From positions 83,529-147,528 of the forward strand of contig NW_022985579.1 in assembly GCF_010093815.1 (NCBI RefSeq): a stretch of DNA of 64,000 nt, in the 5' to 3' direction. A model generated the notes under the pieces. The model was not told where the DNA came from. It did no database searches and was given only the letters and a program-made list of their open reading frames with translations. The position numbers and the translations under genes were made by a program. Positions within the stretch are counted from its first letter, which is position 1. Each line of letters starts with the position of its first letter. Positions 25,611-51,338 of this stretch are shown here, piece by piece. Source of the stretch: Pseudovirgaria hyperparasitica (lineage: Eukaryota > Ascomycota > Dothideomycetes > Acrospermales > Acrospermaceae).

Positions 25611-25800
25611 TCTTGACCTCTGGTTTATCGTACGGAACAGCACAATCACCCGATTGACTTCGCTTACACTGTCTCGACCTACGACACTACACAATGTGTC
25701 GTTTGTCAAAGACATGATTTCCGAGTTCACCTGCCACTGATTCTCACACTCTGGAGGCTCAAACCCACAAGGTCCTCTCCTCCCTCCTTAGCACGCTGCA

Positions 25801-26522
25801 TGGGGCCCTCGCGATAAGCACTGGATTTTCATCAACCAGCAGACAGCCGGGCGTACCTTCGATGACCTTGGTCCAGGATACCAGCAGCAAGGTCAGGGCT
25901 ACGGTGGACAGCAGTACGGGCAGCAACATGGTGGCCCTTCGCAAGGGTATAACCAAGGCGACTGGCTTCCATGATAGAGGTTATGGAGGCCAGGGAAGGT
26001 ATGGCGGTCCTCGTCAACAAGGATATGGACAACAAGGCTACTTTCAAGAGGAGTATAAGGTGTAGAAGAGCCTTGACTGGCTGAAGTACGTTGCGGCTAG
26101 TGCAGCCAGATTAGCTAGAGGCACTTTCTTCATGTACGAGGGAGAGGAAGCCAGTAGGTGGAACCATATTTTCAGGATCGTTCTATACTAAGACTACAGT
26201 AAAGGAAGACTGGGATGAAGACAAGTACCGCATGGGACAACGCGTTGAAAATTTCGGGAACGACGTGGAGAACTTTCCCGAGATCGCCGCCTACCCCGTA
26301 CGTGAAGGTATTCAAGGCGTCGAGGACATACTTGATCGCATTGTGAACAAGTAGGACAATGCCGTGGATAATGTTGAGAATCCGGATATTCCCGAGGATG
26401 TTGCCGGCTGGTCTAGGAATAAAGTCGGCGAAGCGGAATACGATGCTGGTGGCGATGATGCGAGGTATGATCACGACGACAATTATGGGGGCGACGATGG
26501 CGGAGACGGCGGTGGTTGGTAA
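25801..26522 (+). pseudogene. Broken WW-domain, Gln/Gly/Tyr-rich protein gene
   Basis: One frame from 25801 reads a WW-domain-like second half (DKHWIFINQQTAGRTFDD) and a GYGGQQYGQQ-type low-complexity run, then stops near 25974. A shifted frame continues the same style of sequence (HDRGYGGQGRYGG... to FQEEYK) to about 26064. A third block from about 26199, after a possible acceptor CTACAG, encodes acidic repeats (VENFGNDVENFPE; VENPDIPEDVAGW; a Gly/Asp tail ending GGGW) to a stop at 26520-26522. A TAG at 26352 interrupts this block where CAG would fit. WW domains bind proline-rich ligands. At least one frameshift and one nonsense codon make a functional product unlikely. The upstream start is not visible. 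Confidence 0.6.
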
Positions 26523-26828
26523 GAGGTAAGGGGAGGCAGCATGTTTCGTACCTAACTCTGGACGGAGGAGTCAAGATAAACCCTTTAATTACTTTGGATC
26601 GATCTAAAGCACTTTTATCACCGCCTCCAACTAAGTATAAAATCCACGTTTGACTGGTTGCGGAATACTTGACTTAGCAGGCCGTCTAAGGTCATAATAG
26701 ATGGACTGTCTGCCCATAATCTTGCTCAACTTCACCGAACCCTTCTTGAACACCGTTGAGCCCAGCTGATAATGAAACAGGACGTCGAGAAATCTGGTCA
26801 GATGGCTGTGATAGCTATGACAGTAGTC
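26523..26828. other. Spacer between broken WW gene and PKS 3' end
   Basis: About 300 bp without ORF or repeat; it should contain the 3' UTR of the PKS gene, which is transcribed toward it. Confidence 0.4.
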
Positions 26829-29800
26829 CTATACAGGCTCACTCAGAGAAATCGCCTTCTTAGCCACCAATGCGCCGACTTCCACCAGCCTAAAGTCACC
26901 CACTATATCGTGAATGGCCATATCTACACGCAATTCCCGTGCCAGCCAATTTCTTAGTTCCAGCGCGATCAACGAGTCCACGCCAAAAGACCTCATAGTG
27001 TCATGGATCGACTTCTCCTCTTCCTTCATCCCAACAATCTTACAAACTTTCGCTTTGATAGATTCCGCCACTAAAATCTCGGCTTCTTCAATGGACGAGG
27101 CTTCACTCAATACAGCTGTCATATCCTGAGCCTGAGCCGCCATGACTGTTTCATTTTCATTTTCATTTACGGATCTAATTTGATGGAAAGCGCGGAAAAG
27201 GCTTCTGGATAGCTTGGGCGGAAGCTCTCGCCCCTTTCGACGAATGTTTGCTGGGATCTCCAGTCCGCACACAATCTGGCTTCTGGCGGCGCTCGTTGGC
27301 TGATGGACAGGGTGACAGGAATAGTCGAGGATGGCGAAGACTTCCTCTTGTTTGAGTGCGCGTAAAATATCGAGTCGTGAAAGTAACTTCTGGATCTCCT
27401 TGTTCTCGGCAACGATACCTTCGCCTATGATCATACCGAGGTCAATTGCTATTGCTTTCTCTCCTCTCGACACGCGATGTCGCGCTAGCTCATCTTGAAA
27501 GGTATTACCGGCTGCGTAATTGCTTTGACTGGCATTACCAATCACCCCGGCCGTGGACGAAAGCATGACGAAGAAATCTATGCCGGATGGCAGCGTAGCA
27601 TGAAGATTCCATGACCCCGAAACCTTGGTTCTTACACCTTCATTCCACTCTGCCAGTTGCATGGTGGAAAATGGGCGATCCTAGGCGCAAATATCAGCTC
27701 GAAAACTCTCTGGCAACAATTGGGGGCCTACACTAAGAATCATTGCCGCTTGAATGCAGCCCCGGATGGGTGGTAGCGATACAGCAGCTTCGGCAAATAT
27801 CGTCCTAACAGACTCGAGATCGGTTATGTCACACGGTATGCAGTTTACGTTTACTCCCTTCTCCTCTAGCTCATGCACGAGCTGCTTCTTGTCGCTATTG
27901 TGACCGATACCAGAACGTGATAATAACAAGAGATGCTTAGCTCCATGTCGGACCAGCCAACGTGCCACTTGCCGTCCGATCCCGCCCAGGCCTCCGGATA
28001 TTACATAAGTTGCATCTGTATGTAGGCGATATGGAGTAACAGGACTTGCTCTGACCAAGACCTGCGCGTTCTCGGGGATATCTAAGACAATTTTGCCAGT
28101 GCTCTGTCCGCTTTGCAAAAGACGGAAAGCCTGCTCCGCCTGCTCAACCGGGAATGGATGTACAGGGTATGAAGGCATCAGTACACCCGAACTAATGAGC
28201 TCCATGACTTTTTCTAGAATCTCGCCATCGTGTAGATTTTCGTTCTGCACAATGGCAGTTAGATCGACACATGAGAAGGTTGCATTGCGGATAAACGGAA
28301 ACATTGGCAGAGAACCACGAGAGTCAACGTCTTTTCTGCCAATCTCGACAAAACGTCCAAATGGGGCGATAAGTTCCCAGGAGGCGACAAGCAGCCTCCC
28401 AGAGAGAGAGTTCAGGATGACATCTATACCACGATTTTTTGTAATTCTTCGGATCCCATCGGTAAATGAAACGTCACGGCTGGAAAATATGTGGTCTTCA
28501 TGCAGACCGTAGCGATCGATGAGCACTTTTTTCTTGGCTTCAGTGCTCACAGTGGCGAAAATTTGAGCACCAATGTATTTGGCCACTTGGACTGCAGCCT
28601 GACCGGTCCCCCCTGCTGCGGCATGAATCAGGACAGTCTCGCCTTTTTGTAGCCGGCCGACCTGTAATATGTGAGTCCTCGATGAGACGTATCATGCAGA
28701 AACAAACCTTGACTAGACTGTGCCAGGCAGTGTAAAATGCCGTTGGAATCGCCGCACCGTCAACGAAAGACATTTTATCCGGGAGTTTCACAGCCTGGAA
28801 ATCAGCGACCCTCACATAGGTCTTATACGTTTCCAGAGCCCCTGTAGCCACGCGATCTCCTACCTGAAATTTCCGTACCGCACTTCCAATGCGATGTACG
28901 TGACCAGAGCACTCGCCGCCGAGCCTATCGGTATTGACACGTCCCAGGAGAACCAAACACTCCTTGAAGTTGATGCCGATAGCTTTGACTTTCACTTCTA
29001 TCTCATTTGGCTTCAGCCCATTGTATGCAACTTCATCTTCGACCCATTCAAGGCTATCAAGAAGTCCTGGGGTACGAATACTCAATTGGAGTGGCGGACT
29101 CGATTCGAAATCTTGCATCTGTACAACTCTACGCAAAGAGTTCCAGACGTACTCATCTACCTTTTTGGCCTGCGCTAAGCGGCTGACACACAAGCGGCCT
29201 GATACTTCGCGATATTCTTCTTCGTACGAACCGTCAATGAGCCCTGCGTGAGTTGCGACCTGTACCTTCTGAATAATTTCGACAGCCGAAGCAGGAGCTT
29301 CCCACGTATTGGTTTCAAGTAAGAGCGTGACAATGGGGCGGCTTAAATCCTCCGAGCGGCAAGTTCTGACGAGGCCATCAATCATGGCCCAGTAAGGTGG
29401 AGCGTCTTCTCCAGCATCATAGGACTCGGTCCAGATTACACTCTTAGAGCCGGTAAGGACTCTCTGTAATGCTTCGAAGTCGCCCTGTGCAATGTCCGAG
29501 AGCGATTTCTGACCTGGAGAACCAAATATCAAGAAGTCTCTGTGTGCGAGATCCTCCAATTCTAGTATGTCTTCATAATAGGCAACGGTGGCTACGGACC
29601 CACTGGACGATCCGTGATTGGAGGAACTACTCTTGAATTTCTCGGCGATTTGTTCTTCGATCATCGCGCTTTTGCTTAAGAGTATAGTGGTTGAGTGGAA
29701 CGGCGGGAGTGCTGTATTGGGTGAGATGAGGGTTTCGGGCGACGAGATCATGATGCTATATAAATGGCACTGCGGTGACTCCCAATCTTGGTAGACCTGT

Positions 29801-32800
29801 TCCAATCCAGAAAATCCATTCTTCTTCAGAAGTAAATCCCATTGGTCCTCGTCGATGATTGCACTGGATTTTCGTGATCCGTTTGCTCCTAGCCACCAAC
29901 CTGGCAAAGTGCCGAAGACGAACCCGGTCTCGATCTTATTTGGTGTAGTCATCTCCATAATTATGAGTTTTCCCCCGGGCTTTAGTAAGCTCTTGACGTT
30001 CTGTAACGTCTGGTCCAAATCGCGAGTGGCGTGAAGACCATTGGCAGCGACTACAACATCGTACAGCTCTTCGAACCCTTGACTCGCCGGATTTTGTTCA
30101 ATATCGAGTACTTGATACTTCAAACGATCACTGCGTGTCGCGAAACGGTCTTTCGCTTTTTGAAAGAAAAATCCTGATATATCGGTAAACGTGTATGACG
30201 AGTAGCGTGGTCCATGTTCGCTAGACGCGAGGATGTCCAATATCAGACTGGTGGAGGCTCCAGCTCCAGCTCCAATCTCAAGAAAGGTCAAGTTCGGGCT
30301 CTTATGTACCAGGATGTCTAGGTAGCTGTCTAATAGCTTGTAGGCTCTTCCTTGGTTGTTCAATTCTTCGTAAAAGGAAGCCACAAAATGGTCATCCTTA
30401 AACAAGAGACTCAGAGGATCTAAATCCCCGACTAGTATATCCGTCGTTTTCCTAGAACCTGACCCGTCGTCGAGTGTTGTTTTGCTCATCAGAGCATCAG
30501 GATCAGGAAGGCGGCCTAAATGCGAGTAGTGATCAACGCGGGCTTGTAGCCAAGTAGCGTATCGAGTCAAAGAAGGATGAATTCGCCGTCTTTCAGACTT
30601 TATTGTCTCTAGCGCCTTGGCAGCGAAGCAGGATATCATGAGTCGAATATCATCAAAGAATTTTTCAGGTTCCTGCTCGAAACCAACATTATGTGAGCAA
30701 TAGTTATGTATCCCGGTATTGTCGAGCAGAGCTATATCTGGTTTCCAGAATATTCCATAGCATAGTGGTTGGGGACCCGCCTCAGTTTGCGTGTCTTTTT
30801 CATCAGAGGCGACTTGCGTTACCTCGAGCTGGTCAATTTCGACTCTAACTTCATTCGCCGAGCACGAGTATACTACCGTGGAGCTCTCCGCGCAGACCTT
30901 GCTCAAGAACCTTGCTTGACTGTGTGCTATCTCTTGCGCACATGATTCTTTCCCTGCCCCTTGTCTAGAGATCCATATTCGAGAAATCCGTGACGGTACG
31001 AGTGTGGGTAACCCGACTGTAAGTCCTCTACTCAAGGCTGGAATGGTAAGCTGAAATATGCCATCAAGCGTGGCTGGATGAATTACATATGTAGCCGGAG
31101 ATTCAGTCAGGTCTGCGTGCGGTAGAATGGAAGCTATCGCTCTGCCATCCATATTGTAGTGAATATCCGACAAAGGTTGGAACACAGGACCATACTGGAG
31201 CGCTGTACTCTCGTGAATCTTTTGATACATGTCTTGAGTGTCAATACTTCTACGACAGGCCTTCAAAGCGATCTGCAGCTCCTCTTCGGTCCTTTGCCTG
31301 GTGTACATCATCTCTTTCATGGTGAATTGCGTGTCGCGATGGGCGAAGTCGGCACGGATAAGTCCGTCGCAAGCTATCTGCCAGATCGCGTCGGGAAGTC
31401 TCGAGTAGATATTGAACTTATATTGAGCGTCCTTGGTCCCGGCTCCTGCGACAGCTACAAGGCTTGTCTGGAGATCCAAGCTGGCCGAAGATGAATTAAG
31501 GACTATTGGAGCGAGAAAACGGATGTCATGTATCTCGAAACCTACAGGACATGGCTTTTGCTTAGACATTAACTGATTGATAGCCTCGATTGCTAAAGCG
31601 ATCATGCCCGCAGCTGGGTACCATATTTGACCATCGATTTGGTGTTCAGCTATCCATGGCATCGTTTCTTCTTTAATTTGAAGTCTCCATAATGCATTAT
31701 TCTCATTCCAATCGAGACTTGGCTCACCAAGGAGAGCGTTATGACCAAAAGGTCTAAAGCGATAAGACCGGGACCTGCTTGATTCTTGCCAGTGTATCAC
31801 AGAATGATTGAACGGGTAGGGCGGAAGGTCCAGGGCAAACCTTGGGACTCGTGTTGGAGAAGTGCTCAAGGAGTTGATTGCTTGTAGGTCAATCTGAATG
31901 TCCCGACAGTAAAGCTCACCCGCAGCCTCCAAGAGGGTTTTATCTGCGGCCACATTTCTCGCCAGGAGAGGGGCGTAAAAGAAGTCTGTCGCGTCGTTAC
32001 TCTCGAATACCTCGCGGATCGGACCCCGGAGCGCCGAGTGAGGTCCTACCTCCAGCCAGTTGCCTGTGAATATCTTTCCAGTAGAATCTGACTTAGGAGC
32101 AACCGATGAGCTGCAGTCGAGAGTAGCCGCGAGCCTAACTGCTTGTTCAAACTTGACTGGTGAGATCATGTTCTTCACCCAATACATAGGTGTGCAAACA
32201 TCTTGCGGCTTTATTGGATGCGCGGTGACGGAGGAAACCATCATAGTCAAGCCAAAATTGGTGTCGGGAGTCAGATTTATCAGATGCGAAGCATATTCGT
32301 GAGATATCTTTTCCATTTGTGGCGAATGGTAGGCTAGATCTACGTTCAACCTCCGTGTAAATCTGCCGTTTTTCGAAAAGTGGCTAAGTAGTTGATCCAG
32401 CTGCACACTGGGACCCGATAGTGTGACATTGTTGGGGCTATTGATGCAACTGATTGTAATTTTGGATGTGTCAAAGAAGTCTATCGAAGTCTCACTGAAC
32501 TTCGTTAATTCTTCAGTAACCGCGTTGCTTGAAATTTGAACAGCGATCATGCCTTGTTTCTCAGATGAGCTACACGAGACCCTGTCGGCCAGAACTCCTC
32601 TGAAGTAGGCGACCCTGACCGCAGACTCATGAGAAAGGTATCCGGCACAGTAAGCAGCAGCAATCTCTCCTGAAGAATGGCCGACGACAACCTGCGGCTG
32701 AATGTGACAAACTCGGGTCACTTCAATCAGCGCTATCTGGACAATCGTAGTCAAAGTCTGGCTGAACTCAGGCTTGTTGATACGGCTTTGCGCGGGAGAA

Positions 32801-34808
32801 GCAGAGAGCTCTTCCATGATGTTCCATCGACAGCCAAGATCTTCAAGGAAGCTCTGAGAACGGGCCAGGCTTTCTATCACTTTCGGCCATGTCAAAATCT
32901 CGAGCGCCATATTTGGGTACTGTGCACCCTGACCGGTGAATACGAAGCCTAACCGAGGAGTTGAAATATTTATAGAGCGCCGGGAGGTGAGTGATCTACT
33001 ACCGAGCTCAATCAAATCTTGGCTAGATTCAATTATGGAGTATGCACGCCATGATTGTGGGAGCTGCCGTAAGTTAAGAGTGTACAGAACATCCTCCAGG
33101 GCTTCAGCGTTGAGATGGGTTCGGCGATGCGAAAGGTATGCAGATATCGACTGGGTGATTCGTGCGACTCCTTCTTCGTCTGATGAACATATAGCTAGAA
33201 TTCTAGAGGTGCAGCTAGGAGCCACGTTCACGGGTACCAAATCGCCACTATTTGCAACTTTGTCTCTATGGCCGTCAACCGACGCGATACCATTTGACTT
33301 CACCATGCAACTGAGGCGGAGAGTCTTGGATCCATAGTTATACCCAGCGGCTTGGAGATAGTCCATGGCAGAGTCTAGAACAACGTGTACATTTGTTCCA
33401 CCTGGAATAGATTAGCGCGGTAAATAATAGTTTCCACTTGGCTCACCAAATCCAAACGAATTCACCGAGGCCCTTCGAGTCTCATCCTTGGGCCAAGGTA
33501 TACTTTGCGTGGGAAAATGGAGCTTCAATCCAACCGCATCGATTCGCGGATTAAGCTCATCGAAGTTAGCATTTGGGGGTATGATGCCCTCTTCTAAGCA
33601 AATGACAGTCTTGACAATTGCTGCAAGCCCGCTTGCACCTTCCAGATGGCCAATCATTGACTTCAGCGCGCCGACGTACATTGGCGACGAGGCGGAGCGG
33701 TATTCTTGGAACGCTTCACCAATTGCTGAGGCTTCAATCGGATCTCCAATGAACGTGCCAGTACCGTGACTTTCGAAAAAGCGGGTGTATGCCATGTCTA
33801 ATTCAGCCTTCTTGTATGTTTCTCTAATAAGTTGCAACTGCATGTCTTTGCTTGGCTGGGTAAGACCTCCGGGGGTGAAGCCGTCTTGATTCATGCCGAT
33901 CGACCTGATGACTGCGCGAACCGGGTTGCCGTCCCTGATTGCTTTGGAAACTGGCTTGAGAAGTAGTGAAGCGAAACCTTCACCGCGCCCGTACCCATCG
34001 CCTTTTGCATCAAAGCTTCGAGAAGTCCCACTTGGAGAGAGGAAGTTGAGATTACTCAAAGAAATCCCAAATTCAGGTCCAAGAATGATGTTGGCGGCTG
34101 CAACGATGGCCATATCCGAGCCAGAGTAGATGGCCTGGCAACCTAGAGCCGTGGCAACCAGACTACTTGAACAAGCGGTGTCCACGAAGATGCTTTCCCC
34201 TTTTAGATTGAAGAAATAACTAATCCTGTTTGCTAGGATAGAGCTAGCAGTACCAATTGCGTTGTATTTGGGCATGCTCTGTGTGTCACGTGACTGCATT
34301 TGAGCGAAGTCGTGGGCGAATGAGCCCACATGGACTGACGTTTTTGTCCCACTGACGTCTTTCAGAGAAAGCCCAGCATTCTCTATAGCATGGTAAGTGG
34401 CCTCCATCAATGCTCGCTGTTGTGGGTCCATGGCGATGACCTCGTGAGGGGCCATAGCGAAGAAGCCAGCATCAAAGTTGCGGATGTCTGAGCCTAGAAA
34501 GTGTGCTTTCCTTGCGGCAATCTTCAAGGGTCACTTTAGCTGAAAATATCATTTAGGAGAGCTTTGAGGCTTACGGTATTCCGTTTCCCTGAAGGATGCC
34601 AGAAACTGTCTATATTGAGACGGTCCTCGGGGTATTCTGTGGCCAGGTTCTCTCCGACCAGTAGAGCCTTTAGAAAAGCATCGGAGGACTCTATGTCTTT
34701 TGGAAACTTGAAACTCATGCCGATAATGGCAATTGGCTCTGTCTCTGCGGCCATGTGGTGGTCAGACTGCTGATTGTGGTATCCCGGAACACTCGGCATC
34801 TTCTTCAA
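26829..34808 (-). CDS. Highly reducing type I polyketide synthase (KS-AT-DH-MT-ER-KR-ACP)
   Basis: Five exons inferred: 34808-34575, 34521-33447, 33401-28708, 28661-27732, 27680-26829. They sum to 7785 nt (2594 aa) with matching phases; introns are 45-53 nt. Active residues are all present. KS has C195 in VDTACSSSL, H330 in SHGTGT and H370 in GHLEGASG. AT has S679 in GHSSG. DH has H1023 in HQIDGQIWYP and D1216 in HPATLDG. MT has the SAM motif LEIGAGAGA near 1477. ER has AAAGGTGQAA near 2017. KR has SGGLGGIG near 2225 and the Tyr in SQSNYAAGN near 2366. ACP has S2547 in GVDSLIALE. There is no C-terminal release domain, as usual for HR-PKS, so a separate hydrolase or self-release is needed. The product would be a reduced, possibly C-methylated polyketide. 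It is the core of a small cluster with the exporter at 37054. The first intron uses an unusual AAG acceptor. Confidence 0.93.
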
Positions 34809-35092: not shown

Positions 35093-35440
35093 ATCCGTCG
35101 TTTTGCTAGAACCTAAGTCGCTAGCACTAATAGTGCACGCGTGTTCTCTCCCCCATCTCTCTATCCATCTAGAGCTCTGTTCTACTTTAACGTCTATTCT
35201 CCTTCTTCCTCTTCTCTAAGAAACTAGACCCTCTTATTATAGAATAGAATAGAGAGTATAGAGCTTAATAACATGTAGACTTAATCTCCTTAGTCTACTC
35301 TATGAGTCTATGTAGGTATGTTAGTATATAGACCCTTATATAGAGGTAGAGAGGTAAAATAACTATCCAATAGGGGTGTGTAAATATACGCGTGTAATTG
35401 AAAAATGCTAAGCGACTTAGGCTCTAGAAAAACGACGGAT
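35093..35440. mobile_element. 348-bp terminal-inverted-repeat element (MITE-like)
   Basis: The left end (35093-35126) begins ATCCGTCGTTTT and runs through CCTAAGTCGCTAGCA. The right end (35406-35440) is its inverted copy, ending AAAACGACGGAT. The arms are about 34 bp and match at nearly all positions. There is no coding capacity inside, so it would be non-autonomous and mobilised by a transposase elsewhere. A clear target-site duplication is not visible, as the flanks are only AT/AT-like. It lies about 285 bp upstream of the PKS start. Confidence 0.75.
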
Positions 35441-36640
35441 GTCTTAAGCGCTCGCTCGAGTACTCTTGGCAGCGCCGATAGTAGGTACCGACCCTGTTTA
35501 CTACCGGTTAGCCAGCCTCTCTATTTCTACCTAGAGCCCTATTCCATGTACATTACTATTACTTATCTAGACTCCGGCATGCATATACAGTCGGATATAA
35601 CCCGAGGGCCTAGATTAGAATTATATAGTTAGTTAATCTAAAAGTTTAGCTTAAGATTAGAATCTATACTATAGAATTACTAGAAATACTTATATTAGAA
35701 TAAATTAAGTATATAATAATTATCTAATTAAAAAGTAGAAGGGAGATAGAAAGACTAAGAGATAGATTATAAGTATATTATATCTATATCTTAGAATATT
35801 ATATATATTTACTAATATATAACTTTAAGTAACTAGAGATATAGAAATTTTAGTAGATTTAATAAAATAAAATTAATTAATATATCTAGCTAATAGTAGT
35901 CTATCTATTATCTATATATAAGATTAAAACTAACTAAGATTTAGATAATAGAGCTTAATAATAGAAATACTATAGAGATATATAGATACTTTAAGTTCTA
36001 GTACTAGTAGTATATTAAGTCTCTTTATAGAAATAGATATAGTAGATAAGAAATAAATAGATATAGTAAGATCTAGATAGTAATAAAGATTCTTTAGACC
36101 TCTTAGTATATATTATATAATATATATATATTTTATCTAAAATTATCTTTTATATAAAATTACGTTTTCTTTAATAGCTTTAAAATTAAGATTTTAGAAA
36201 GTTTCTAATTATATTTAAATATACTACTTTTATATAGACTCTTATCTTATATATATATAATAATAATAAAGTAAATAAATAAGTTATTTTAAAAATTCTT
36301 TAAATAATAGTTATTTTAAGAAGAGATAAGAAAAAGAAACTTAAATATAGTTTTTTATTAGAATAACTTACTTATTTATTCTTTTTTTCTTACTTTCTTA
36401 TATTCTATTTCTATCTATTACTATATTAAGTTATAGAATAGAAATAGAATAGATATTAGTAGAGTCTAGAGAAAGGTACTATATAATTAGTAATCTATAA
36501 GATTTCTATAGATCTAATATAGAGATAGCTAATTAATATCTAGAAGACTAGCTTATATAAAACTAATATAATTATTATAGCCGTCTTCGAATTATTATTA
36601 TTAACGTTAACTATATTTAACTAGTATAGTATAAATGGTC
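35441..36640. repeat. AT-rich RIP-degraded repeat DNA, includes repeat copy B
   Basis: From about 35630 to 36620 the sequence is nearly all A/T with dense TA steps and stops in every frame. The part at 36180-36365 matches copy A near 25260-25460 in the same orientation. The first 180 bp (35441-35620) is less AT-rich and may be the remnant of another element. Confidence 0.7.
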
Positions 36641-37053
36641 TTAAGCTACACGTCTTTAAGTAAACAAGGTACACGTCTCAGAGTAAATAACCTCCCTTGC
36701 ATCGGTTAAAACATATCCGCCCTCTCCGGAACCATGTATTTGAACTTACACAAGTAATCTAACCAATTAGATTTAGACTATACCATCTTCGCAATCTTTC
36801 TTAAGGCGTAGATTAAGCTTGTACTCTGTATTACGTTATTTAATAAGATTGAGCGTGCATGGATTCGGATTGTATGCGCCGTCTGCTCTAAGCATAAAAC
36901 CCTATCCCGACGGAGCAATTACGGCCCGGCTCATCTGCCTCAGCAGTGGACGGCTACATAGCACCTACAACGCACGTGTGCGAGCCCTGAGGTAGGCAAA
37001 GCAGTTTTTCAGATGAGACTATCCGAGTCCAACTCTTTCATCTTCTGCATACC
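36641..37053. promoter_or_regulatory. Promoter region of the exporter gene
   Basis: Composition returns toward normal from about 36660. No ORF of note. It should hold the promoter and 5' UTR of the MFS gene starting at 37054; no specific binding site was recognised. Confidence 0.35.
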
Positions 37054-39029
37054 ATGTCGAATATCAAGAACGAGGCTGTGAGAGACGACATCTCTCAACC
37101 TGCTGTGGTTCAGAATGGCTCTTCGAAACACTTCGAAGATTCTCTGGATCACGTACAGTGGATTACAGGATGGAGACTGTGGATCATTGGTATTGGGTAA
37201 GTCTGGCAAAATTCCAAGCGACTATATCTGCTGAGGCATCGCTAGGCAAGGTCTCTGCTTGTTCATGGTCCAGACAGAATTAAGCATCACAGGAACAGCA
37301 ATAATATCTATCACGAATGATCTTGGGAACTTTGCGATCAGCTCATGGGTTTTTACAGCTTACCTACTCGCCTACGGAGGTGAGAATCTGAAAATACCAG
37401 TATTAAAGTTAACACAACTTGACATTATCGCAGGCTTTCCAATTATTCTTACCCGGCTTTCCGACATTTTGGGCCGCAAAGTTGTCTGGCTCAGTTGCCT
37501 GGTTCTCTTCATCATATTCACCGGCGCATGTGGAGCATCACAAACGCTATTTCAACTGTAACTCATCCATAATCGAACAACCCTCTTTGGTGAGCTGACA
37601 TCGGTTAGCATCATGTTCCGTTGGATAACAGGCATTGGTGCAAGCGGAGTCCTTTCCATTGCCAGCCTCTATGGTTTCGATTTACGCCCTCCTGAAAAAT
37701 GGGCTCAATACTCCGCAGCTGTCATATCTGTGGTGACAATATCGTTTGCCATTGCGCCAGTAATCGGGGCAGCCCTATCGAACGTCGGTCAATGGCGGTG
37801 GGTATTCCTGCTGAAGTAAATACTTTTCCTCCTCGAACATAATGTCAATTAAGAAATCCGCTAAAAATTTCAGTGTTCCGTTAGGCGTCGTAACCTTTCT
37901 CATGCTATCTTTCGCCGCACCTAGCAAACTCACACAGGAACCCGCCTCCAGAAGGCGCTCTGATATACCTGATGGACATTCGAAAGGGCGAACGAGTGCT
38001 CTTCGTACGCTTGACGTAATAGGAGTCGTCACTGTTCTTGGAAGTTCGATACTAATCACAGCTGCCTTGCAGCAGGCCGCCAAAGGAATACCTTTCAGGT
38101 CAGCTCAGGTGATCGCTTTGATAGTCGTCGGAGGGCTACTTTCCTTAGCATTCGTGCTCTGGCAATGGCTTCTATCGTCCAATAGCAGGACTGTCTCGCC
38201 GTTGCTCTCGTGGGAAATTTTGACAAACCGGATATTCTTGGGTATGCTTGTGTACGCGTTCCCAAATGCTGTCATGCTGTATGATATCTTGACATTCGTA
38301 GTGATTCTTGGCTTGTCGGTGCCATCGTTGCTGTCAGCATTGTTCAGATACCTCAGAGGTTCGCAGTGGTCAATGGCTATTCGATTTTAGACGCGGGCGT
38401 GAGACTGCTCCCGTTCGCTGCTGTGATGGCTGTCTCTTCGATACTTGCGACAGTCATCATGACAAGAGCTAAGATACCTGCTGTCAACATGCTCATCTCA
38501 AGCGGACTTCTCATGGTGGCTGGCACGGTAGGTCTGTCCAAGTCGTCAACGTCAGGACAACTTCAAGCCCATCAATATGGTTTCCAAATCCTTACCGGTT
38601 CTGGTGTCGGCATAATGGTTGTCGTTCTAGGAATCTTACCTCCGTACGTTGTAGAGAGAAAATATATAGGTGAGTGTCCTTTGAGTCAATGATCACACCC
38701 GGCTGACCCAAGTCTTAGCGGTGACTTCTGGGGCTGTTACTCAGTTCAGACTGCTTGGCTCTGCGATCGGATTGGCCCTCGTGACGTGTGTATCGAACCC
38801 CTATCTATCTAGAAACTTACAGGGGATTTTGTCCACCGAGGAAATCAAAGACTTCCTTGATCGTCCTTCAACCTTGTATGAACTAGCGCCTCAGAAGCAA
38901 GCCGCGTTACGTGAGATCAGTGGTAAATCTTATAATTTGCAGATAACGATCATGATTGGGTTTTCTGTGGCAACAGTACTTTTTAGCTTGCTACAATGGC
39001 AAAGAAACGCTATCGTGATCAAAGGATAA
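37054..39029 (+). CDS. MFS exporter, DHA2-like (14-TM) drug/toxin efflux family
   Basis: Seven exons inferred: 37054-37196, 37246-37379, 37434-37557, 37609-37815, 37874-38300, 38348-38669, 38719-39029. They total 1668 nt (555 aa) with matching phases; introns are 47-58 nt, and the fifth donor (GTGATT, or GTAGTG three bases earlier) is the least certain. Family signs are the start of TM1-2 (GLCLFMVQTELSITGTAI), the motif A region (LTRLSDILGRKVVWL), FRWITGIGASGVLSI, GQWRWVFLLNVPLG (motif of 14-TM DHA2 exporters) and VVNGYSILDAGVRLLP. The protein would pump a small molecule, likely the polyketide, out across the plasma membrane by proton antiport. The open frames are intact although the flanks are RIP-degraded. 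It is transcribed away from the PKS. Confidence 0.88.
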
Positions 39030-39102: not shown

Positions 39103-40230
39103 TTAAGGGCAATTGATAAGGAAAGTGATCCTCACTGATGATCCATGTAGCGTGAGCAATTGATTGTCGAAAATGATCTCCACAGTGAGCTCAGCTCTAA
39201 TATACTCTAGCATCCTTGCCGTGCTGCTAGTCATCACGGCTAGGGACAGCATATTAGCTATAGATTTCAGTTCACTGCACAGGATTGGAAATATATGGTA
39301 GACATTTATGTGGGTACTATATTTGTTGCAATCTTCACATACGATGATTCCAGCTGACTCACTAACATCGCGGTGCAGAACTTGCTTATCACTGCCATCC
39401 TCATTCGCAGCGTACAATGAACCTATAAGATCCGTGATGTAAATACGATTCTCCTTTCGATCATGAGCAATGCCCACACCTTCATGTAACCTTTCTACAA
39501 TGATCTCTGTTTCCAACCCTTCTTGTACTCGATTGAGATCGAGTCGACTAATGGTGTTACCGAAAGGCATTTCGCCTCGGCCACTCATATAGAGAATGTT
39601 AGTCTCAATGTCAACGTCTAAGTCGATAGACTCTGGAAGGTCCTCGAGAAGAGTAACTTTGTCGTTCCGAGACTCGGCGACTTCTCCTGTAGGCATATCT
39701 AGATCCGCACACCATAATGAGCCCGTACCACTTTTCGGAGCACCTTTTCGTGTCCAGTATAGCTTTCGTCGCCGAGGGTCAACGGCAACTCTACACACCA
39801 CTTCGCCATATCAGCGCCGGCACCACCTATATCTCGATTCGAACATTTTCGCCTTCAAGTCTGCAGCTCCATATCTTGCCGCCTTCTCTGTCCGCCCAAT
39901 ATAGTCTTCTAGCCGAATCATCTATAGCAATTTGCTTCGGACTCCGAGTGACTCCTTGGGACACCAAAACGCTTGTTTCGTGCTTCGTGAGATCAAGTCT
40001 TGATATCTGTCCACGTTGGCTTCCCGGAGGACTCATTTGGGTGAAGTAAATGTATCGATTGGAAGTGTCCATGACCAGACTATCTGGAAGATTCGTGATT
40101 ATATCAAGGAGAGTAGTGAGAGAAGATACGTCTGTTTACATACAGATTCGTCTTTGGGACTAAGGTCCACATGTCGAGAAATGCCAAGATCGAGAAAGAG
40201 GAGAACTCTACGTTGAATTCTGGGATCCAT
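39103..40230 (-). pseudogene. Broken YWTD/SMP-30-like beta-propeller gene
   Basis: The ATG at 40230 begins a frame (MDPRIQRRVLLFLDLGIS). A different frame then continues with ITNLPDSLVMDTSNRYIYFTQM and IAIDDSARRLYWADREGGKIW down to 39827. A third frame covers the DMAKWCV block near 39805. The last starts near 39801 with VAVDPRRRKLYWTRKG, then SIDLDVDIETNILYMSGRGE and AHDRKENRIYITDL. The repeated [VI]D-x(4-8)-[LI]YW[TA] pattern is the LDL-receptor YWTD / SMP-30 propeller type found in fungal metabolite clusters. Introns cannot reconcile the frames at the two junctions, so at least two indels are likely. A good intron may end the coding part near 39340 (GTATGT...GTGCAG followed by TGA). If sequencing error explains the shifts, the gene would be intact. 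Confidence 0.55.
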
Positions 40231-43954: not shown

Positions 43955-44182
43955 TATAAGAATAGGGTTATTAGATAGTAGTATAGCTAGATGGAACAAT
44001 GGGGTGTATTCTATTATAGAACGAATTACTACCGAACCCTTTTGGTAGGAATCCGAGAGTATATATATAAAGGGACGCCGATCTATCTAGCACGTAACTA
44101 TTTACCGCCCTTCACGTTACCTCCTAACCCTATTAGCTAAGGTACGTGTAGGTCGGGTCCTACCTAAGGCTAAGTCCTAATA
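43955..44182 (-). repeat. 3' LTR of the gypsy element
   Basis: 228 bp beginning TATAAGAATA and ending CTAATA on this strand; the canonical TG...CA ends kept in the right LTR have become TA...TA, consistent with RIP. A pyrimidine run TCCCTCCCCTCT just inside (44187-44198) is the polypurine tract on the element's own strand. Confidence 0.9.
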
Positions 44183-44666
44183 ATTATCCCTCCCCTCTAG
44201 AAAGCTACCCTTAGCGACCTAGATCGTTACCTATCCCTATATCTCTATCCTAAGTCTCGTAAGACCTTAGTCGTTCTCCACGCTTTATCTTAGATACTTA
44301 CTAATATTCGCCGATCTAAGATTCATATAAGCGTTTTCCTAATAAACTAGATTTTATCCATCTTAACTTCTTATATAGGTGAGATTGCCTAATTAGGCCT
44401 AGCGTATCACGTGATATGATTAGGTAAGCCCGGGTGCTACCTATATTAAAATCTTTTCTTAGAAATATTCCTTTCTTTAAAAAACTTCTTAACTCTTTAT
44501 AGAGTTTTTTAGATTATTAGGTATATTACCCGATCCTTATAGACATAGATTTATATAGATTTACTACTATTTAGTGCGATTTACGTAATTTACTAATTTT
44601 CGTACCGTCCTTAGCTAGAAATAACATAATTCGCAATAATCCGTATAAATTAATAATAATTATAAT

Positions 44667-45657
44667 ATGGTTTCCCGAAATCTCGACGCTCTAAAGTAAT
44701 TAGCGCGGAAACAGGCGCCTTCGAATAATCCCTATCTTATATACGTTACCGACATGTCGAAAGCCATTAATCTACCCCAACCTAGGCCGGGCTCTAATAA
44801 TCTAGCTATATATTATTATGGTTGTCGCTTTCCGTCGTACATTACTCACGGTAGTACTAAATCTATAATATACGGTACTTACATAACCAAGAAGCGTTAT
44901 TACTTATAGGTATTTAAGTAAGTTCGAAGAACTTTACGTAGATTTACTTATATTAGTATAGATTACTACTAGGCCTCTAGTAACCCCTACTAATAAGGAG
45001 CGTGGTACCACCGATCGCAACGCCTTAGAGAAGGCTTTCTACGAGCTATATACCTAAGGTAAGGGTTACGCCTAGGAGTACGATTCTAATAAGATCCATA
45101 AGGGTTTATCGGAATCTACTATAGCTATTATTACCGCGATTACTAGGTAATATCGTTTTTCTTAAATCGTTATAGATTCTTACTAATATATATTAATCTC
45201 TATAATAGTACTAAAATCTCTGCCACTTCGGACTTCTTTCTACACACCAGCGATATTAAAATTCCTAGAAAAGGTTCTAGTAAAAAGGCTAAGGTTCCTT
45301 CCTCGCGCGTGCTAAAGAGCCGTAAATTTAGGGAAGATGGCTCTGATCTGGAAGTTTCTATACTAACGGTATGTGGTTCTATACCGATCGTTGAATCTTT
45401 TCGCTGATTTATATAATTCTTAGCGTGCCCGCGCCGGTCCGTCCCTCTCCGTCCCGGGTTCCGCCGCTCTATAGGTTTCTATAGAGGAGTTTATAGCTAT
45501 AAGGCGCGCTATATAGAATTTATAGCGTCGGAACGAAAGGCTAGAGACTTATATTATAAAGCTCTATACTATGCTAAACAAGAACTAGCAGAAGGAATTA
45601 GATGTAACCATCGCGGTAATTAGTACTTCTACTCCTACTCCGACTTAATTAGTTTAG
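44667..45657 (+). pseudogene. Antisense accessory gene relic inside the retrotransposon (zinc-finger-like, basic, coiled-coil)
   Basis: On the strand opposite to gag-pol, an ATG at 44667 opens a frame that stays in phase for 234 codons apart from RIP-type stops. It reaches a donor GTATGT at 45369. A 55-nt intron (45369-45423, acceptor CTTAG) leads in phase 0 to a second exon ending at a stop near 45646-45657. The N-terminal part shows paired Tyr/Cys positions (YLIYVTDM; YYYGCRFPS; IYGTYITKK) that read like a Cys-rich finger after Cys-to-Tyr changes. The middle is Lys-rich (RKGSSKKAKVPSS). The end is helical and charged (RRNERLETYIIKLYTMLNKN). It may be nucleic-acid binding (inference). I do not recognise the family. 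It could also be a separate nested insertion. Confidence 0.5.
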
Positions 45658-46169
45658 ATCTATACCGATCGGTACTAATATATCTCTTTTATCTAGCGTT
45701 TTGGTTTTTTCGGTTTCAATTTTAAAGCGATCTTACTTCTTCTAGATAGATTAGTGCGAGTTTATATAGATCTATATAGATCTTTATATTTTCTTTTAGC
45801 TTTCTTAATTTCATCTTTCTTTAATAATAACTTCTTTAATCTCTTTAGTAATCTATACCGATCTATACCGATCGGCACCGATTTTCGATGTCTATTTCTC
45901 TTAGTGAATCATTTTTCTAAGTCTCTTTTTTAGTTAAATTTTTTAAAGTTCTAAGTTTGAACTTTCTAAGGAAGTTCCTCAATTCCTTGGAATATTTTAA
46001 AGATCTATGTCTCTTTCACCTTCTTCCTTTTAGGCGGCCGTCCTCGGCGCCGAACTATACTAAAAAACGTCGAATTACCGTACTTTAGTATAATTCTCTG
46101 CGATTCCGCGGCTTCCTTTGCTAATCGCTACTTATATACTAATATCGCTACTTTACTAATGTTTATTAC

Positions 46170-49100
46170 AGGTTCCCAAGTATCTTCGTTAGGATTATAC
46201 CCTTTCTAACGAATTTTATATAGCCACGTGCTATCTTCGGCACGTTATTAGCCTAGTATCTACTTAACTTCGTAGATATCCGCACCTCCTTACGTAACTA
46301 CTTTATGTAACGTCTATTTAGAACGATCCGGTAACGATAAGGCATGGAATGGCTCGAGAAGCGTAATATAGAACACATTGTGTATCTTTAACGTGGGAGG
46401 GAGTTTTAACTCATACGCCTAGTTATTAATTACACGAGTAACCTTAAATAGACCTATCATCGTGTAGTTAAGCTTCTTCTTCGGCCTGATACTACGAATA
46501 TTTTTGCTATTTAGTAAAACTTTATCTCTAATATTAAAGATCATGGGCTTTCTACCCTTATTATAGTGCGATTTACTATAATCTATAGCATCTTATAATA
46601 ACTTTATAACGTTTCTTTACGTTTAGAATAGTTCTATTATAATCTCCGTCGCCTTAACGTTAGGCTACTCTGATTTATACTAAGTTCCCATGAACTACGC
46701 TTTATGGTTTTAACCGAAGTTTACTTCGAACGGACTTACGTAGGTTAACGTATGTCGGCTATTATTATACGCGAATTCCGCGACATAGACTAACCTTACC
46801 TAGTTATCTTGCTTATAGTTGTAATATGCGCGTAAATACGCCTTAACTATCTAATTCTACCGCTCTATCTACCTATCTGTTTATGGGTGGAACGCGGTGC
46901 TAAGTTTCCGCTTAATTCCTAGTATATAGTAGAAATCCTTCTAAAACTTAGACGTTATCTACGGACCTCTATCCGAAACTATGCCGTTCGGTATACTATA
47001 GAGCCGAACTACGTCACGAAGTAGTATATCTATAAGATCCGGTACTTGGATCGTCTTTCTTATAGGGATATAGTATAACATCTTTATAAATCTATCTAGA
47101 ACTACGAGTAAACTATTATAAACATGCCTAAGATACTTACTTAGGGGTAGATCTATGATAAAATCCATCGATAATTCCTTCCATGCTTCCTTTGGCATAG
47201 GTAATGGCCTTAATTCGCTATATAGCAAGTGTCTATGCACTTTCGTATGCTGGCAAACGTTATACGTTTTTACGTAGTCTTTTATATATTTATAAAGACC
47301 TAGCTAGTCGTACGTCCTTCGGATTAAATCGACCGTCCTTATAACGCCGAAGTGCCCTACTAACGCGTAATCGTACTATTCCCTTAAAACATCGATTCGT
47401 AAGCCGCCTTCCGGCACGTAGAGTCGGCCTTAGAAGTAGATCGCGTCTAATCGTCGTTCCCACCTTAATAACCACGGCGGTTCTATAGCTATTCCCTTTA
47501 TACTTATGACTTTCTTTACTAATATATCGGAATTCTAGGTAGATTTAATTAAGTCTTCGAGGATTTACTCTGTTTCTTAGACGTTAGTTTAGATTACTTA
47601 ATGCCCGCTCTAATTCCCGCGGAGAGTCGCCGAAAGTGTCCTAGCTTCTAGCACTCTATTAGATAACTAGTCTTTTAGTATCCGTAGTATAGCATAGTCT
47701 AAATTACACCGACTATCTACGTTATTCTACGACGATTTCTCGTAATCTTCACGCCGTGATAGAGGATCTACTTTATTCTCTCTTCTAGCTTTATATAAGA
47801 TTTTAAAGTCAAATATTAATATCCACTTAGCCTAACGTACTTATCGGCGATTAAGGACCTTAGTTAACATAAAGTAACGTAGATTTGCGTAATCCGATAA
47901 CAATTCAATCTAATATACGGAGCCTTCTAAATAATATCGCTATTGCTTAAAACTCTCGATAATTATGAGTAGTTCCTGGTCGTGCGTATTATAACGCGTC
48001 TCTACATCCGCCATTTTACGGGAAAAGAAGGCGACCGGGTGCTATTATACCTTGTCTTTCATATCTTTATACAGTTAACTAATAATTCCAGCAATTGCGA
48101 ATCTAGATGCGTCTATTTCGACCCGAATGTGCTTCTCGGGATCGAAATGCCTAAGAATCGGCGTAGTTATAAAGTAATTCTTTAACGATCGGAACGTATC
48201 TCGCGCTTCCGGCGTTAACTATATCTCGACCGACTTAGCTTTGCGCTATGCTCGCCCACCTATGGGGATTTTACCGCCATTCTCTATGAGTTTATTAAGC
48301 GGCGCCGTAATTCATAAGAAACCTATAATAAATTTACGATAATAGTTCACGAAACCTATAAACGTCCTGATTTAACGTATAGTAGTAGGTTCTAGCCATT
48401 CTATAATGGTCTTGACACGCTCTGGCTCCATTTTAAGGCCGCTGTGTGTTATAATAAAGCCGAGAAACCCAACTTCTTATTAGTGAAACTTATATTTAGA
48501 TAACTTTACGTAGAGTTTATGCTATCTTAAACGATTTAGTACCGATTTCACGTGTTCTTCGTGATCCTACATGCTATCGGAGTAAATTAGTATGTTATCG
48601 AGGTAAACTACGTAGATCACATTAAGTAATCCTATAAGTATAGTATTAATGTATCCTTAGAACGCTCCTGGCGCATTTATTAGCCTAAACGGCATAATAG
48701 TATACTTAAAATAACCATATCTAGTCCGAAATGCGGTTTTCCACTTATCTCCGCGACGGATTCGAAGCCGGTAATATATATCTCGCAAATCTAGCTTCGT
48801 AAAGTACTTTGCCTTCGTTAATTAGTCTAAAGATTTACTAACTAACGGTAATAGATAACGATTCTTCTTAGTTACCGTATTTAGTACTCGATAGTCGACG
48901 CATAGATATAAACTTCCGTCTTTCTTCTTCACGAAGAGAATAGGTGCGCCGGCTAATGACGTACTATAATGTATCTAGCCTCTTCCGAGATATTCTTCGA
49001 TATATTTATAAAGAACTTCGAGTTCTAGTCTCGAAAGTAGGTAAAGTAGACTATAAGGGACGTCTACTCCCTCTTCGAGCTTGATCTTTAGCTTATACGG

Positions 49101-51080
49101 TCTATGGTCGGGGAGAAGTAACGCGTCTCCTACCGAAAACACATCCGTGTACTGCGAATATACGTCGGGTAGCGTGTCTTTACCCCGATTATTACTATCC
49201 TCTTCGTCTTCGTCGACGATTAATAGGGATATAAGGTAGATTAGCGATAATCGGGTCCGCACGGCGAGGTTCCATGCCTCCTTACTAATGGTTGCGACTT
49301 GCTAGTATAATTTACCGCGATGTCGACGGAACGTTAATGTCTCCTTCTAAAAATTAAGGATTGGATTTAGACGTTTAAGCTAAGGCATCCCTAGAATCAT
49401 ATTCTATTAGCTAATATTAGCCACGATGAATTTATTAGATATCTACTATTTTATTATCTTTAAGTCATGAACTTCGTAATTCGTTATAGTTTTACCTAAA
49501 GTTCTAACTTTATGTCCATTAACTACGATAGTTCGGCTAACTTTACCGAGATCGTACGATAATCTACACTCCTTGGTAAGAATCGACGAAATATAGTTAT
49601 CTTCTACACTAGTGTCCACGAGGGCCTATATAGTTTTATTACTATTTACTATGGGTAACGATACTTTTAGTAATATTAGGTCTTTACTCGCCGGAAGGCG
49701 CTACGGCTTCTCCTAAGTATATATAATTTAGCTAAGAACGCGGTTAGGTCTCGCGTACTAGCCTATTCTTTTTTCGGATTCTTATAGTTAGGCGAAATAT
49801 ATCCCTTTTCTCTATACTTATAGTAATAAAGTGCGCTATGATCCTACTATTTTGCGATAGGCGTTATATTTAAGCCTATGCCTTATCCTTTTCCGCGTTA
49901 GGAACCACCGCCTTAATTGTTTCGGTGTCCTCTTAACGCGTTTCTACCCCGATTTACGCTCTTCTAGTGTTAATCGCGGTAAGGTTACTCTTGATCGAAC
50001 GTATTCGATCGACCTCGTTTCTAACCCGTGTGGGGTTCGTTAGTTTTACCTAGAGAGCCGCGTTCCTTAAGGATGCGGTAGTGTTCGTTAGCTTTCTCCT
50101 CTAATTCGTATAGATAGTTAAAACTTAATAATACTATTCCTAATCTTTCGTGGATTAACGGGAGTAGTGCTTCGCGAAACTAGAATATACAAATATTTTC
50201 CTATAGTGTAGGGATATTATCCTAGAGGTTTTATAGGTATTATAGTAGTTAAGTAGGTGTCTAGTTCGGTCGTTATACCACGCTTCTTAACTTAGATAGT
50301 GCCTTTCTTTCGCGTTCTCCGTTAGTTCCGAGGGTATTTAGTATAAATATAGCTAAATGTTCCTAGGTTGTCGCCGATAGTGGCTTGACTTCCTTCTATC
50401 TATTCTATTGATCGCGGGATTGTAAACCTAAGTAACGTTCTCCGAATGAAATGCGTTATGCTTCGGTAGAAAAGAGCATAGGGTTATTAAGGAAGTACTT
50501 CTCGCAGTCTCTCTTCCAATCTTTCTACTTCTTTTGGTTCTTCCCTATAAATATAGTCGGATCTTTAGGTTTTAGCACACCTAAGGAAGGAGTAGGGTAA
50601 ATCGGCAACGAAGCGGCCGGGTATACGGTAGATTATCGCAACTCTAATGGTGGGTGAACTAATTCCGCCTAAATTAGTATAGGAAGTCGTCCATCTACTA
50701 TCGTTCCGCGTAGTCTTTTAAGAGACTCGTTAAGTTCTTATCGTTTTACGAGGAGTTTCGCACGTTCGGTCTATTCTTTAAGGATCTATATCTCTCGGGC
50801 TTGATTAGCGATATGCTCCTGTAGTTCGGCGATTAATGGTTGCGATTCCTTGTGTAGCTCTACCACGACTCGTTGTCTAGCTTCCTATCGTAGGAAGTCG
50901 CTTAGTGTATCTACTATTTCCTTATTAGAAAGTTCCGTGATTCGGTCGGACATCTCCACTTCTCTATTAAGAACGGCCGGATTTAATACCGATTATAGAG
51001 AATCCCTATTATTTAATGTAGTGTTACTTGTCCCTATAGTGGATCGTGTCGACCTTCTTAGTTCTAGTTAGACCATCTTA
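46170..51080 (-). pseudogene. Degraded gag-pol of the gypsy element
   Basis: Read on the minus strand. Near 50800-51080 is a gag start region (MSDRITELSNKEIVDTL). Near 49800-49860 is a CCHC knuckle in which the Cys positions are now Tyr (YYKYREKGYISPNY). A protease-like ALVDTS lies near 49610. Reverse transcriptase runs from about 49262 (DHRPYKLKIKLEEG) through the catalytic box now reading YLDN-ILIYS at 48594-48608, where YLDD is expected. The integrase core is at about 47240-46960 (WKELSMDFIIDLP, then VLDRFIK and IVSDRGP). The chromodomain is at 46275-46170 (EVK-stop-ILG ... KGYNPNEDTWEP). Gag-pol looks like one long frame before mutation, but this was not checked codon by codon. Not functional. 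Confidence 0.85.
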
Positions 51081-51110
51081 ACTATAGTACTATATAGGGA
51101 GTAATTCGAA

Positions 51111-51338
51111 TGTAAGAATAGGGTTATTAGATAGTAGTGTAGCCAGATAGAATAATAGGGTGTATTCTATCATAGAACGAATTACTACCGAACCCTTTCG
51201 GTAGGAATCCGAGAGTATATACACAAAGGGACGCCGATCTATCTAGCACGTGACTGTTTACCGCCCTTCACGTCATCTCCTAACCCTGTTAGCTAAGGTA
51301 CGTGCAGGTCGGGTTCTACCTAAGGCTAAGTCCTAACA
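51111..51338 (-). repeat. 5' LTR of the gypsy element
   Basis: 228 bp beginning TGTAAGAATA and ending CTAACA on this strand, the best preserved of the three LTR copies with intact TG...CA ends. Same length as 43955-44182 and 40671-40898. Confidence 0.92.

What the first reader, a model, noticed from the sequence alone, without database searches (positions are those of the whole stretch)
26829..34808. An intact seven-domain HR-PKS reconstructed from five ORF pieces inside RIP-degraded surroundings
The pieces look like a broken gene, but four short introns restore phase and give 2594 aa with every catalytic residue present. Its survival among degraded repeats suggests a single-copy gene under selection, or a recent arrival. 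No other core biosynthetic gene is visible, so the product is likely a reduced, possibly C-methylated polyketide from a minimal cluster (PKS plus exporter).
Basis: partly seen in the sequence, partly recalled or inferred. Interest (0 to 1): 0.75.

Follow-up and report, generated by a model that had tools for sequence, protein, structure and literature searches.

The report
Intact fungal polyketide synthase beside exporter
This looks like a normal, intact fungal gene for a polyketide-making enzyme with four small introns, and it seems to have been inherited together with a neighbouring exporter gene in several distantly related fungi, so it is a real but ordinary pathway rather than a broken or newly arrived gene.

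Summary
Confirmed, and mostly ordinary. Minus strand 34799-26829 holds an intact seven-domain highly reducing polyketide synthase (KS-AT-DH-MT-ER-KR-ACP): five exons, four GT-AG introns of 45-53 nt. All 15 catalytic or cofactor motifs checked are present, and the junctions fit relatives. No rescue story is needed: the gene is single copy (best other match 30% identical), and the RIP-type DNA on the right is a repeat block shared with four other contig ends, split here by an LTR-type element. 'Recent arrival' is not supported: the gene groups with other Dothideomycete PKSs. In 9 of the 12 other species found in both hit lists, its relative shares a contig with a relative of this PKS, and PKS and MFS distances of the linked pairs agree closely (r=0.96; 182 of 210 quartets). 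This suggests an old, co-inherited PKS-exporter pair, though many close rows in either list had no listed partner and gene distances were not seen. Product and release step are unknown; alpha-pyrone release is my guess.

The parts
34575..34799 (-). PKS exon 1 (N-terminus, start of KS), aa 1-75
34522..34574 (-). intron 1, 53 nt, GTAAGC...TTGAAG
33447..34521 (-). PKS exon 2 (KS), about aa 76-434
33402..33446 (-). intron 2, 45 nt, GTGAGC...TTCCAG
   Evidence: continuity
28708..33401 (-). PKS exon 3 (last residues of the KS region, AT, DH, MT, structural region, start of ER), about aa 434-1998
28662..28707 (-). intron 3, 46 nt, GTTTGT...TTACAG
   Evidence: continuity
27732..28661 (-). PKS exon 4 (rest of ER, first half of KR), about aa 1999-2308
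27681..27731 (-). intron 4, 51 nt, GTAGGC...GCCTAG
   Evidence: continuity
26829..27680 (-). PKS exon 5 (second half of KR, ACP, stop), aa 2309-2591
37054..39029 (+). MFS exporter gene, seven exons and six GT-AG introns in my model; public model P0121 (554 aa) is 98% identical to my 551 aa and differs somewhere by a few residues
34800..37053 (.). 2254-bp head-to-head region between the PKS and MFS start codons, AT-rich in the middle, carrying short dispersed repeats

Best explanation
An intact, single-copy iterative highly reducing type I polyketide synthase of Pseudovirgaria hyperparasitica (recalled to live on rust fungi), divergently paired with an MFS exporter with which it appears to have been co-inherited for a long time. 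Shown: gene structure, domains, motifs, single copy, exporter gene, shared contigs in nine other species, similar trees. Inferred: AT loads malonyl-CoA; KS extends the chain; KR, DH and ER reduce each beta-keto group to a programmed degree; MT may add methyl groups; the ACP carries the chain. No TE, reductase or condensation domain follows the ACP, so the chain must leave by cyclising itself (for example to an alpha-pyrone after a last unreduced step) or through an enzyme encoded elsewhere. The MFS protein then exports the product.
For: Pfam domains in order on five exons. Agreement with an independent public protein. 15 of 15 motifs present; the MT His is kept in all 11 clade members aligned, this one included. 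Junctions fit relatives. KS is 62-68% identical to the ten clade relatives aligned while the structural region is 28-40%, the uneven pattern expected under constraint. CRI -0.44 to -0.68 in the four 2-kb bins of 26-34 kb. MFS gene intact. The 120 listed PKS rows (119 with a contig length) against the first 44 of 120 listed MFS rows gave 10 shared contigs, one of them this one. Of 13 species in both typed lists, 10 have PKS and MFS on one contig; in one, a lichen fungus, the source names carry the tags 007920 and 007922. PKS and MFS distances of the 10 linked pairs correlate at r=0.96 (0 of 20000 permutations as high), r=0.95 with taxonomic class (recalled) held constant. 182 of 210 quartets agree (shuffle mean 70.6, maximum 163, 0 of 2000 as high).
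Against: No RNA or metabolite data. Same contig was inferred from equal contig length plus organism name; distances between the two genes in other species were not seen. Three species in both lists (Xylaria scruposa, Venustampulla echinocandica, Xylariomycetidae sp. FL0641) do not have the pair on one contig. Of the 11 named PKS rows among P0002-P0015 only five have a listed MFS relative on their contig, and of the 11 closest other MFS rows (P0122-P0132) only four have a listed PKS relative on theirs. 28 of 210 quartets disagree. In the MFS tree a Talaromyces protein sits among the Sordariomycete ones. MT activity is not certain even with its motifs present.
Confidence: 0.85

Rival explanations
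1. A decaying pseudogene or RIP relic whose pieces only look joinable.
For: The gene is split over five reading frames, borders an AT-rich RIP-like intergenic stretch and lies about 6 kb from a RIP-type block; a one-residue alignment gap lies beside junction 1.
Against: The four interruptions are 45-53-nt GT-AG introns at positions where relatives run on; no RIP signal in the 26-34 kb bins; the motifs checked are intact.
Confidence: 0.03
2. A recent horizontal arrival that has not yet been hit by RIP.
For: Named close relatives are scattered over several classes; position near a contig end with short dispersed repeats beside it.
Against: In the tree it groups with Zopfia, Lindgomyces and Periconia, Dothideomycetes like its host (SH-aLRT 98), on a long own branch of 0.87; the Sordariomycete members form a separate group (100). 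The MFS tree has a matching Dothideomycete group (99/98). Apart from itself no listed protein exceeds 45% identity to the main exon (120 rows listed, only the 7993 candidates sharing most words were scored). An old transfer between classes is not excluded.
Confidence: 0.07
3. The gene pair is the remnant of a larger cluster whose tailoring genes were lost or replaced at the edge of the repeat block.
For: A decayed-looking SMP-30/gluconolactonase-like gene lies at 39.1-40.1 kb between the MFS gene and the repeat block; 23 kb beyond that is repeat DNA.
Against: No P450, release-type hydrolase or Zn2Cys6 regulator match in the 49 of 82 window reading frames of at least 100 aa given to Pfam. The SMP-30-like piece had no listed relative besides its own public model, so its link to the pathway could not be tested.
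Confidence: 0.35

Closest known systems
Lovastatin nonaketide synthase LovB (PDB 7cpx)
   Same: Best match in the PDB to the whole protein (E 1.8e-234), over KS-AT-DH (20-1244), MT and structural region (1429-1873) and KR-ACP (2212-2577)
   Different: LovB continues past its ACP with a condensation-like domain and relies on a separate ER partner (recalled); here the ER keeps its nucleotide motif and the protein ends after the ACP
Squalestatin tetraketide synthase (SQTKS)
   Same: One relative in the same clade, P0011 of Paramyrothecium foliicola, carries this name in its source; same domain order (recalled)
   Different: The name is a source label; no characterised SQTKS sequence was compared here
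Pyrone-forming HR-PKSs: Trichoderma atroviride Pks1 (6-pentyl-alpha-pyrone) and Penicillium crustosum XilA
   Same: HR-PKSs for which the papers propose release by pyrone formation (passages of PMC12010586 and PMC9147667); XilA is reported with the same KS-AT-DH-MT-ER-KR-ACP order
   Different: Sequence relation not tested here; product of the present enzyme unknown
Reducing PKSs predicted in Lindgomyces, Zopfia, Periconia, Mollisia, Apiospora and Thozetella
   Same: Same clade (support 100), 41-45% identical over the main exon; a linked MFS relative is listed in five of these six genera, Zopfia being the exception
   Different: No function was stated for these proteins in anything I read

Membership tests
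Fungal highly reducing iterative type I PKS | KS, AT, DH, ER, KR and ACP in one polypeptide in canonical order | tested here: met
Fungal highly reducing iterative type I PKS | Catalytic residues of each domain present | tested here: met
   15 of 15 motifs present in P0001 (motif identities recalled, strings taken from P0001 and compared with 14 relatives)
Fungal highly reducing iterative type I PKS | C-methyltransferase domain with SAM motif and conserved His/Glu | tested here: met
   activity not testable
Fungal highly reducing iterative type I PKS | Iterative use and reduced product | not testable with these tools
   needs expression and metabolite analysis
PKS-NRPS hybrid | C-A-T-R or at least a C domain after the ACP | tested here: not met
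   the ACP match ends at residue 260 of the 283-aa last piece, which then runs to the stop
Co-inherited PKS-MFS pair | PKS and MFS linked and co-inherited in several species | tested here: met
   same contig in 10 of 13 species in both typed lists, this one included; trees and distances agree; gene distances not seen, and many close rows in either list have no listed partner
Co-inherited PKS-MFS pair | No further genes needed | tested here: inconclusive
   no other biosynthetic Pfam match in 49 of 82 reading frames, but homologous loci could not be read
RIP-mutated repeat DNA (right side) | Composite RIP index above 0 and copies differing by transitions | tested here: met
   CRI 0.86-1.48 in the twelve 2-kb bins from 40 kb on; 155 of 155 differences to the C2 copy over 3001 bases are transitions

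The most novel reading that the evidence does not exclude
The PKS and its exporter are a deeply conserved, chemically uncharacterised two-gene unit present in at least four classes of Pezizomycotina, whose product releases itself from the enzyme and needs no tailoring; in this rust-associated fungus (recalled) it may serve antagonism between fungi.
Probability: 0.3. Interest if true: 0.5.

Novelty: new member of a known kind. Interest (0 to 1): 0.27.

Why it matters
HR-PKSs are common and this one is already in public databases, so the gene alone is not news. The useful part is the evidence that a particular HR-PKS clade travels with its own exporter across fungal classes: it marks a compact pathway with an unknown product that could be tested in a heterologous host. 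The locus also shows that RIP beside a gene is no sign of special survival when the gene is single copy.

Tried and rejected
Pseudogene: rejected on intron, motif and continuity evidence. Recent horizontal arrival: not supported by either tree. 'Survival' as evidence of selection: rejected, since RIP needs duplicated DNA (general knowledge) and the best other match in the genome is 30% identical over most of the query (one 133-residue stretch of the MT region reaches 49%). Telomere next to the gene: no two-unit TTAGGG array in the window and none on C31 in the exact four-unit search, though the flanking block lies at contig ends. SMP-30-like neighbour as a third conserved cluster gene: its search returned only its own public model out of 333 candidates, so linkage could not be tested. 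Characterised closest relative: among the 120 rows listed of 3658 hits three bear names of known enzymes as source labels (P0011 squalestatin tetraketide synthase, P0058 fub1, P0107 azaB), none from the organism in which that enzyme was studied as far as I recall; I had no sequences of characterised enzymes other than PDB chains. Papers: searches on an HR-PKS/MFS two-gene cluster (one paper, not opened), HR-PKS with gene pair (none), PKS with Mollisia scopiformis or Lindgomyces ingoldianus (PMC4936691, of which I read one passage, a table naming P. hyperparasitica among hits to M. fijiensis PKS8-4; relation to this gene unknown), HR-PKS with squalestatin synthase or methyltransferase domain (12 of 16 listed, none opened) and the locus-tag prefix EJ05DRAFT (none) showed nothing on this gene. 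One search listed ten papers naming the species; passages of three were read, two about a swainsonine cluster and one the table just named. From (8 of 13 listed) I read passages of two papers.
Full report
What is there. The minus strand between 34799 and 26829 carries five open pieces with Pfam matches, in order, to ketosynthase, acyltransferase, dehydratase, methyltransferase, alcohol-dehydrogenase-type enoylreductase, ketoreductase and a phosphopantetheine carrier. A homology search with the largest piece returned a public 2591-residue protein called reducing type I polyketide synthase of Pseudovirgaria hyperparasitica, from a contig of 147528 bases; the window is the last 64000 bases of a contig of that length. 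That protein maps onto the window in five exact segments. With the ends placed at GT and AG the introns are 53, 45, 46 and 51 nt.

Is it intact? Against 10 relatives, junctions 2, 3 and 4 run on without a gap, except that relative P0005 itself lacks residues at junction 2; at junction 1 P0001 is one residue shorter two residues before the junction. Fifteen motifs for active-site or cofactor residues (KS Cys and two His, AT Ser and His, DH His and Asp, MT SAM motif, His and Glu, ER nucleotide motif, KR nucleotide motif, Ser and Tyr, ACP Ser; names recalled, strings looked for in P0001) are present and match the corresponding columns of most of 14 relatives; the clearest misses are in the relatives (P0003 lacks the AT His stretch; P0044 and P0062 lack the MT His). 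Identity to the ten clade relatives aligned is 62-68% in KS and 56-66% in ER against 28-40% in the structural region. The composite RIP index of the four 2-kb bins within 26-34 kb is -0.44 to -0.68. Pseudogene and RIP-relic readings fail.

Surroundings. To the left lie ordinary genes: GH3, forkhead, an LRR-type protein (just over its cut-off), GH16 and a ferric reductase. To the right, head to head and 2254 bp away, is an intact MFS transporter gene. The intergenic stretch is AT-rich (GC 0.20 at 35.5-36.5 kb, CRI up to 1.25) and carries short dispersed repeats. Beyond the MFS gene is a decayed-looking SMP-30/gluconolactonase-like gene (39.1-40.1 kb) and then RIP-type DNA to the contig end (CRI 0.86-1.48 in the 2-kb bins). 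Of the 82 reading frames of at least 100 aa in the window, 49 were given to Pfam; none outside the PKS gave a biosynthetic core, P450, release-type hydrolase or Zn2Cys6 match. Exons shorter than 100 aa were not tested.

The repeat block. Window 40.9-64.0 kb is collinear with segments of about 15.7 kb on C2 and C10 (93-95% identical), and two parts of it match C1 and C3. Those copies end 14.7 kb from the start of C2, 11.2 kb from the start of C10, 138 bases from the end of C3 and 17.5 kb from the end of C1: a repeat of contig ends, probably subtelomeric, though no telomere array was found on C31. Over 3001 bases the C31 and C2 copies differ by 155 transitions and nothing else, as expected of RIP. 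A 7.4-kb element (43955-51336) with 224-nt direct ends (93% alike) and a weak, sub-threshold integrase match sits only in the C31 copy of the three compared, flanked by the short repeat CAGTAGG; 15 other near-full-length copies at 90-95% lie elsewhere in the genome, a lower bound. The PKS start lies about 29 kb from the contig end. Since RIP acts on duplicated DNA (general knowledge) and the best other match in the genome is 30% identical over most of the query, the good condition of the gene needs no special cause.

Origin. In a tree of 30 PKS proteins (chosen from the 120 listed) the window's protein groups with Zopfia, Lindgomyces and Periconia (SH-aLRT 98), all Dothideomycetes (recalled), next to a Sordariomycete group (100) and Mollisia, in a clade with support 100 (quick search, midpoint root). 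Its own branch is long (0.87). That speaks against a recent arrival; an old transfer is not excluded.

The exporter. I searched with the MFS protein and compared contig lengths as a proxy for linkage. The 120 listed PKS rows (119 with a length) against the first 44 of 120 listed MFS rows gave 10 shared contigs, one being this one; the other nine have the same organism name on both sides. In the typed lists (37 of 120 PKS and 22 of 120 MFS rows), 13 species occur in both and 10 have PKS and MFS on one contig, or 9 of 12 without this species. The exceptions are Xylaria scruposa (MFS on an 8.3-kb contig, hardly long enough to hold both genes), Venustampulla echinocandica and Xylariomycetidae sp. 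FL0641. Where a linked species has several PKSs in the list (Lindgomyces four, Mollisia three, Periconia macrospinosa two), it is the best-scoring one that shares the MFS contig. Two of the shared contigs are short (32 and 82 kb), and in the lichen fungus the tags are 007920 and 007922. Protein distances of the 10 linked pairs correlate at r=0.96 (0 of 20000 permutations as high), r=0.95 with class (recalled) held constant; 182 of 210 quartets agree and 28 do not (shuffle mean 70.6, maximum 163). Both trees put Pseudovirgaria basal to Lindgomyces and Periconia in one Dothideomycete group; in the MFS tree a Talaromyces protein sits among Sordariomycete ones, which hints at a transfer there. The pair therefore looks old and co-inherited in Dothideomycetes, Sordariomycetes, Leotiomycetes and Lecanoromycetes (classes of the other hosts recalled). 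Limits: gene distances in other species were not seen, and relatedness of the species is only roughly controlled by class.

How it most likely works. By analogy with the family (recalled): malonyl units are loaded by AT, condensed by KS, reduced by KR, DH and ER to a programmed extent, possibly methylated by MT, on the ACP. No releasing domain follows the ACP. For Trichoderma atroviride Pks1 and Penicillium crustosum XilA the papers propose release by pyrone formation; the first reports no MT activity despite an MT domain, and for the second the ring methyl was traced to acetate although an MT domain is predicted (passages). A pyrone-type, exported product is my best guess for the present enzyme, with perhaps one chance in three; a hydrolase encoded elsewhere is the alternative.

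Verdict. A correct observation of an ordinary kind of gene that is already in public databases; partly correct interpretation; one useful addition, the evidence for a conserved PKS-exporter pair. No paper on this gene was found in the searches listed, which cover open-licence papers only and of which I opened passages of five papers.

Noticed in passing
window 43955-51336: LTR-retrotransposon-like element (224-nt ends 93% alike, flanking CAGTAGG repeat, weak sub-threshold integrase match) inserted into the contig-end repeat; absent from the C2 and C10 copies; at least 15 other near-full-length copies at 90-95% in the genome.
   Followed up: partly
window 40947-64000: Repeat of contig ends (C1, C2, C3, C10, C31), probably subtelomeric; the C31 and C2 copies differ only by transitions (155) in the 3001 bases compared.
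   Followed up: partly
window 61178-61480: Reading frame with a Macro-domain match (E 9.5e-08) inside the RIP-type repeat block.
   Followed up: no
window 39103-40135: Decayed-looking SMP-30/gluconolactonase-like gene (by eye) next to the repeat block; public model P0241 (216 aa), no other relative listed.
   Followed up: partly
window 35150-36850: PKS-MFS intergenic region carries several short dispersed repeats, one of about 240 bp at 35.20-35.44 kb with 20 further whole or partial matches listed in the genome.
   Followed up: partly
window 25700-26530: Plus-strand stretch with pieces of a glycine-rich protein interrupted by stops, possibly a decayed gene converging on the PKS (by eye); no Pfam match in the two reading frames tested there.
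   Followed up: no
G000 C27:9530-14685 and C6:18529-22649: Two other PKS genes of the same genome also lie within 25 kb of a contig start.
   Followed up: no
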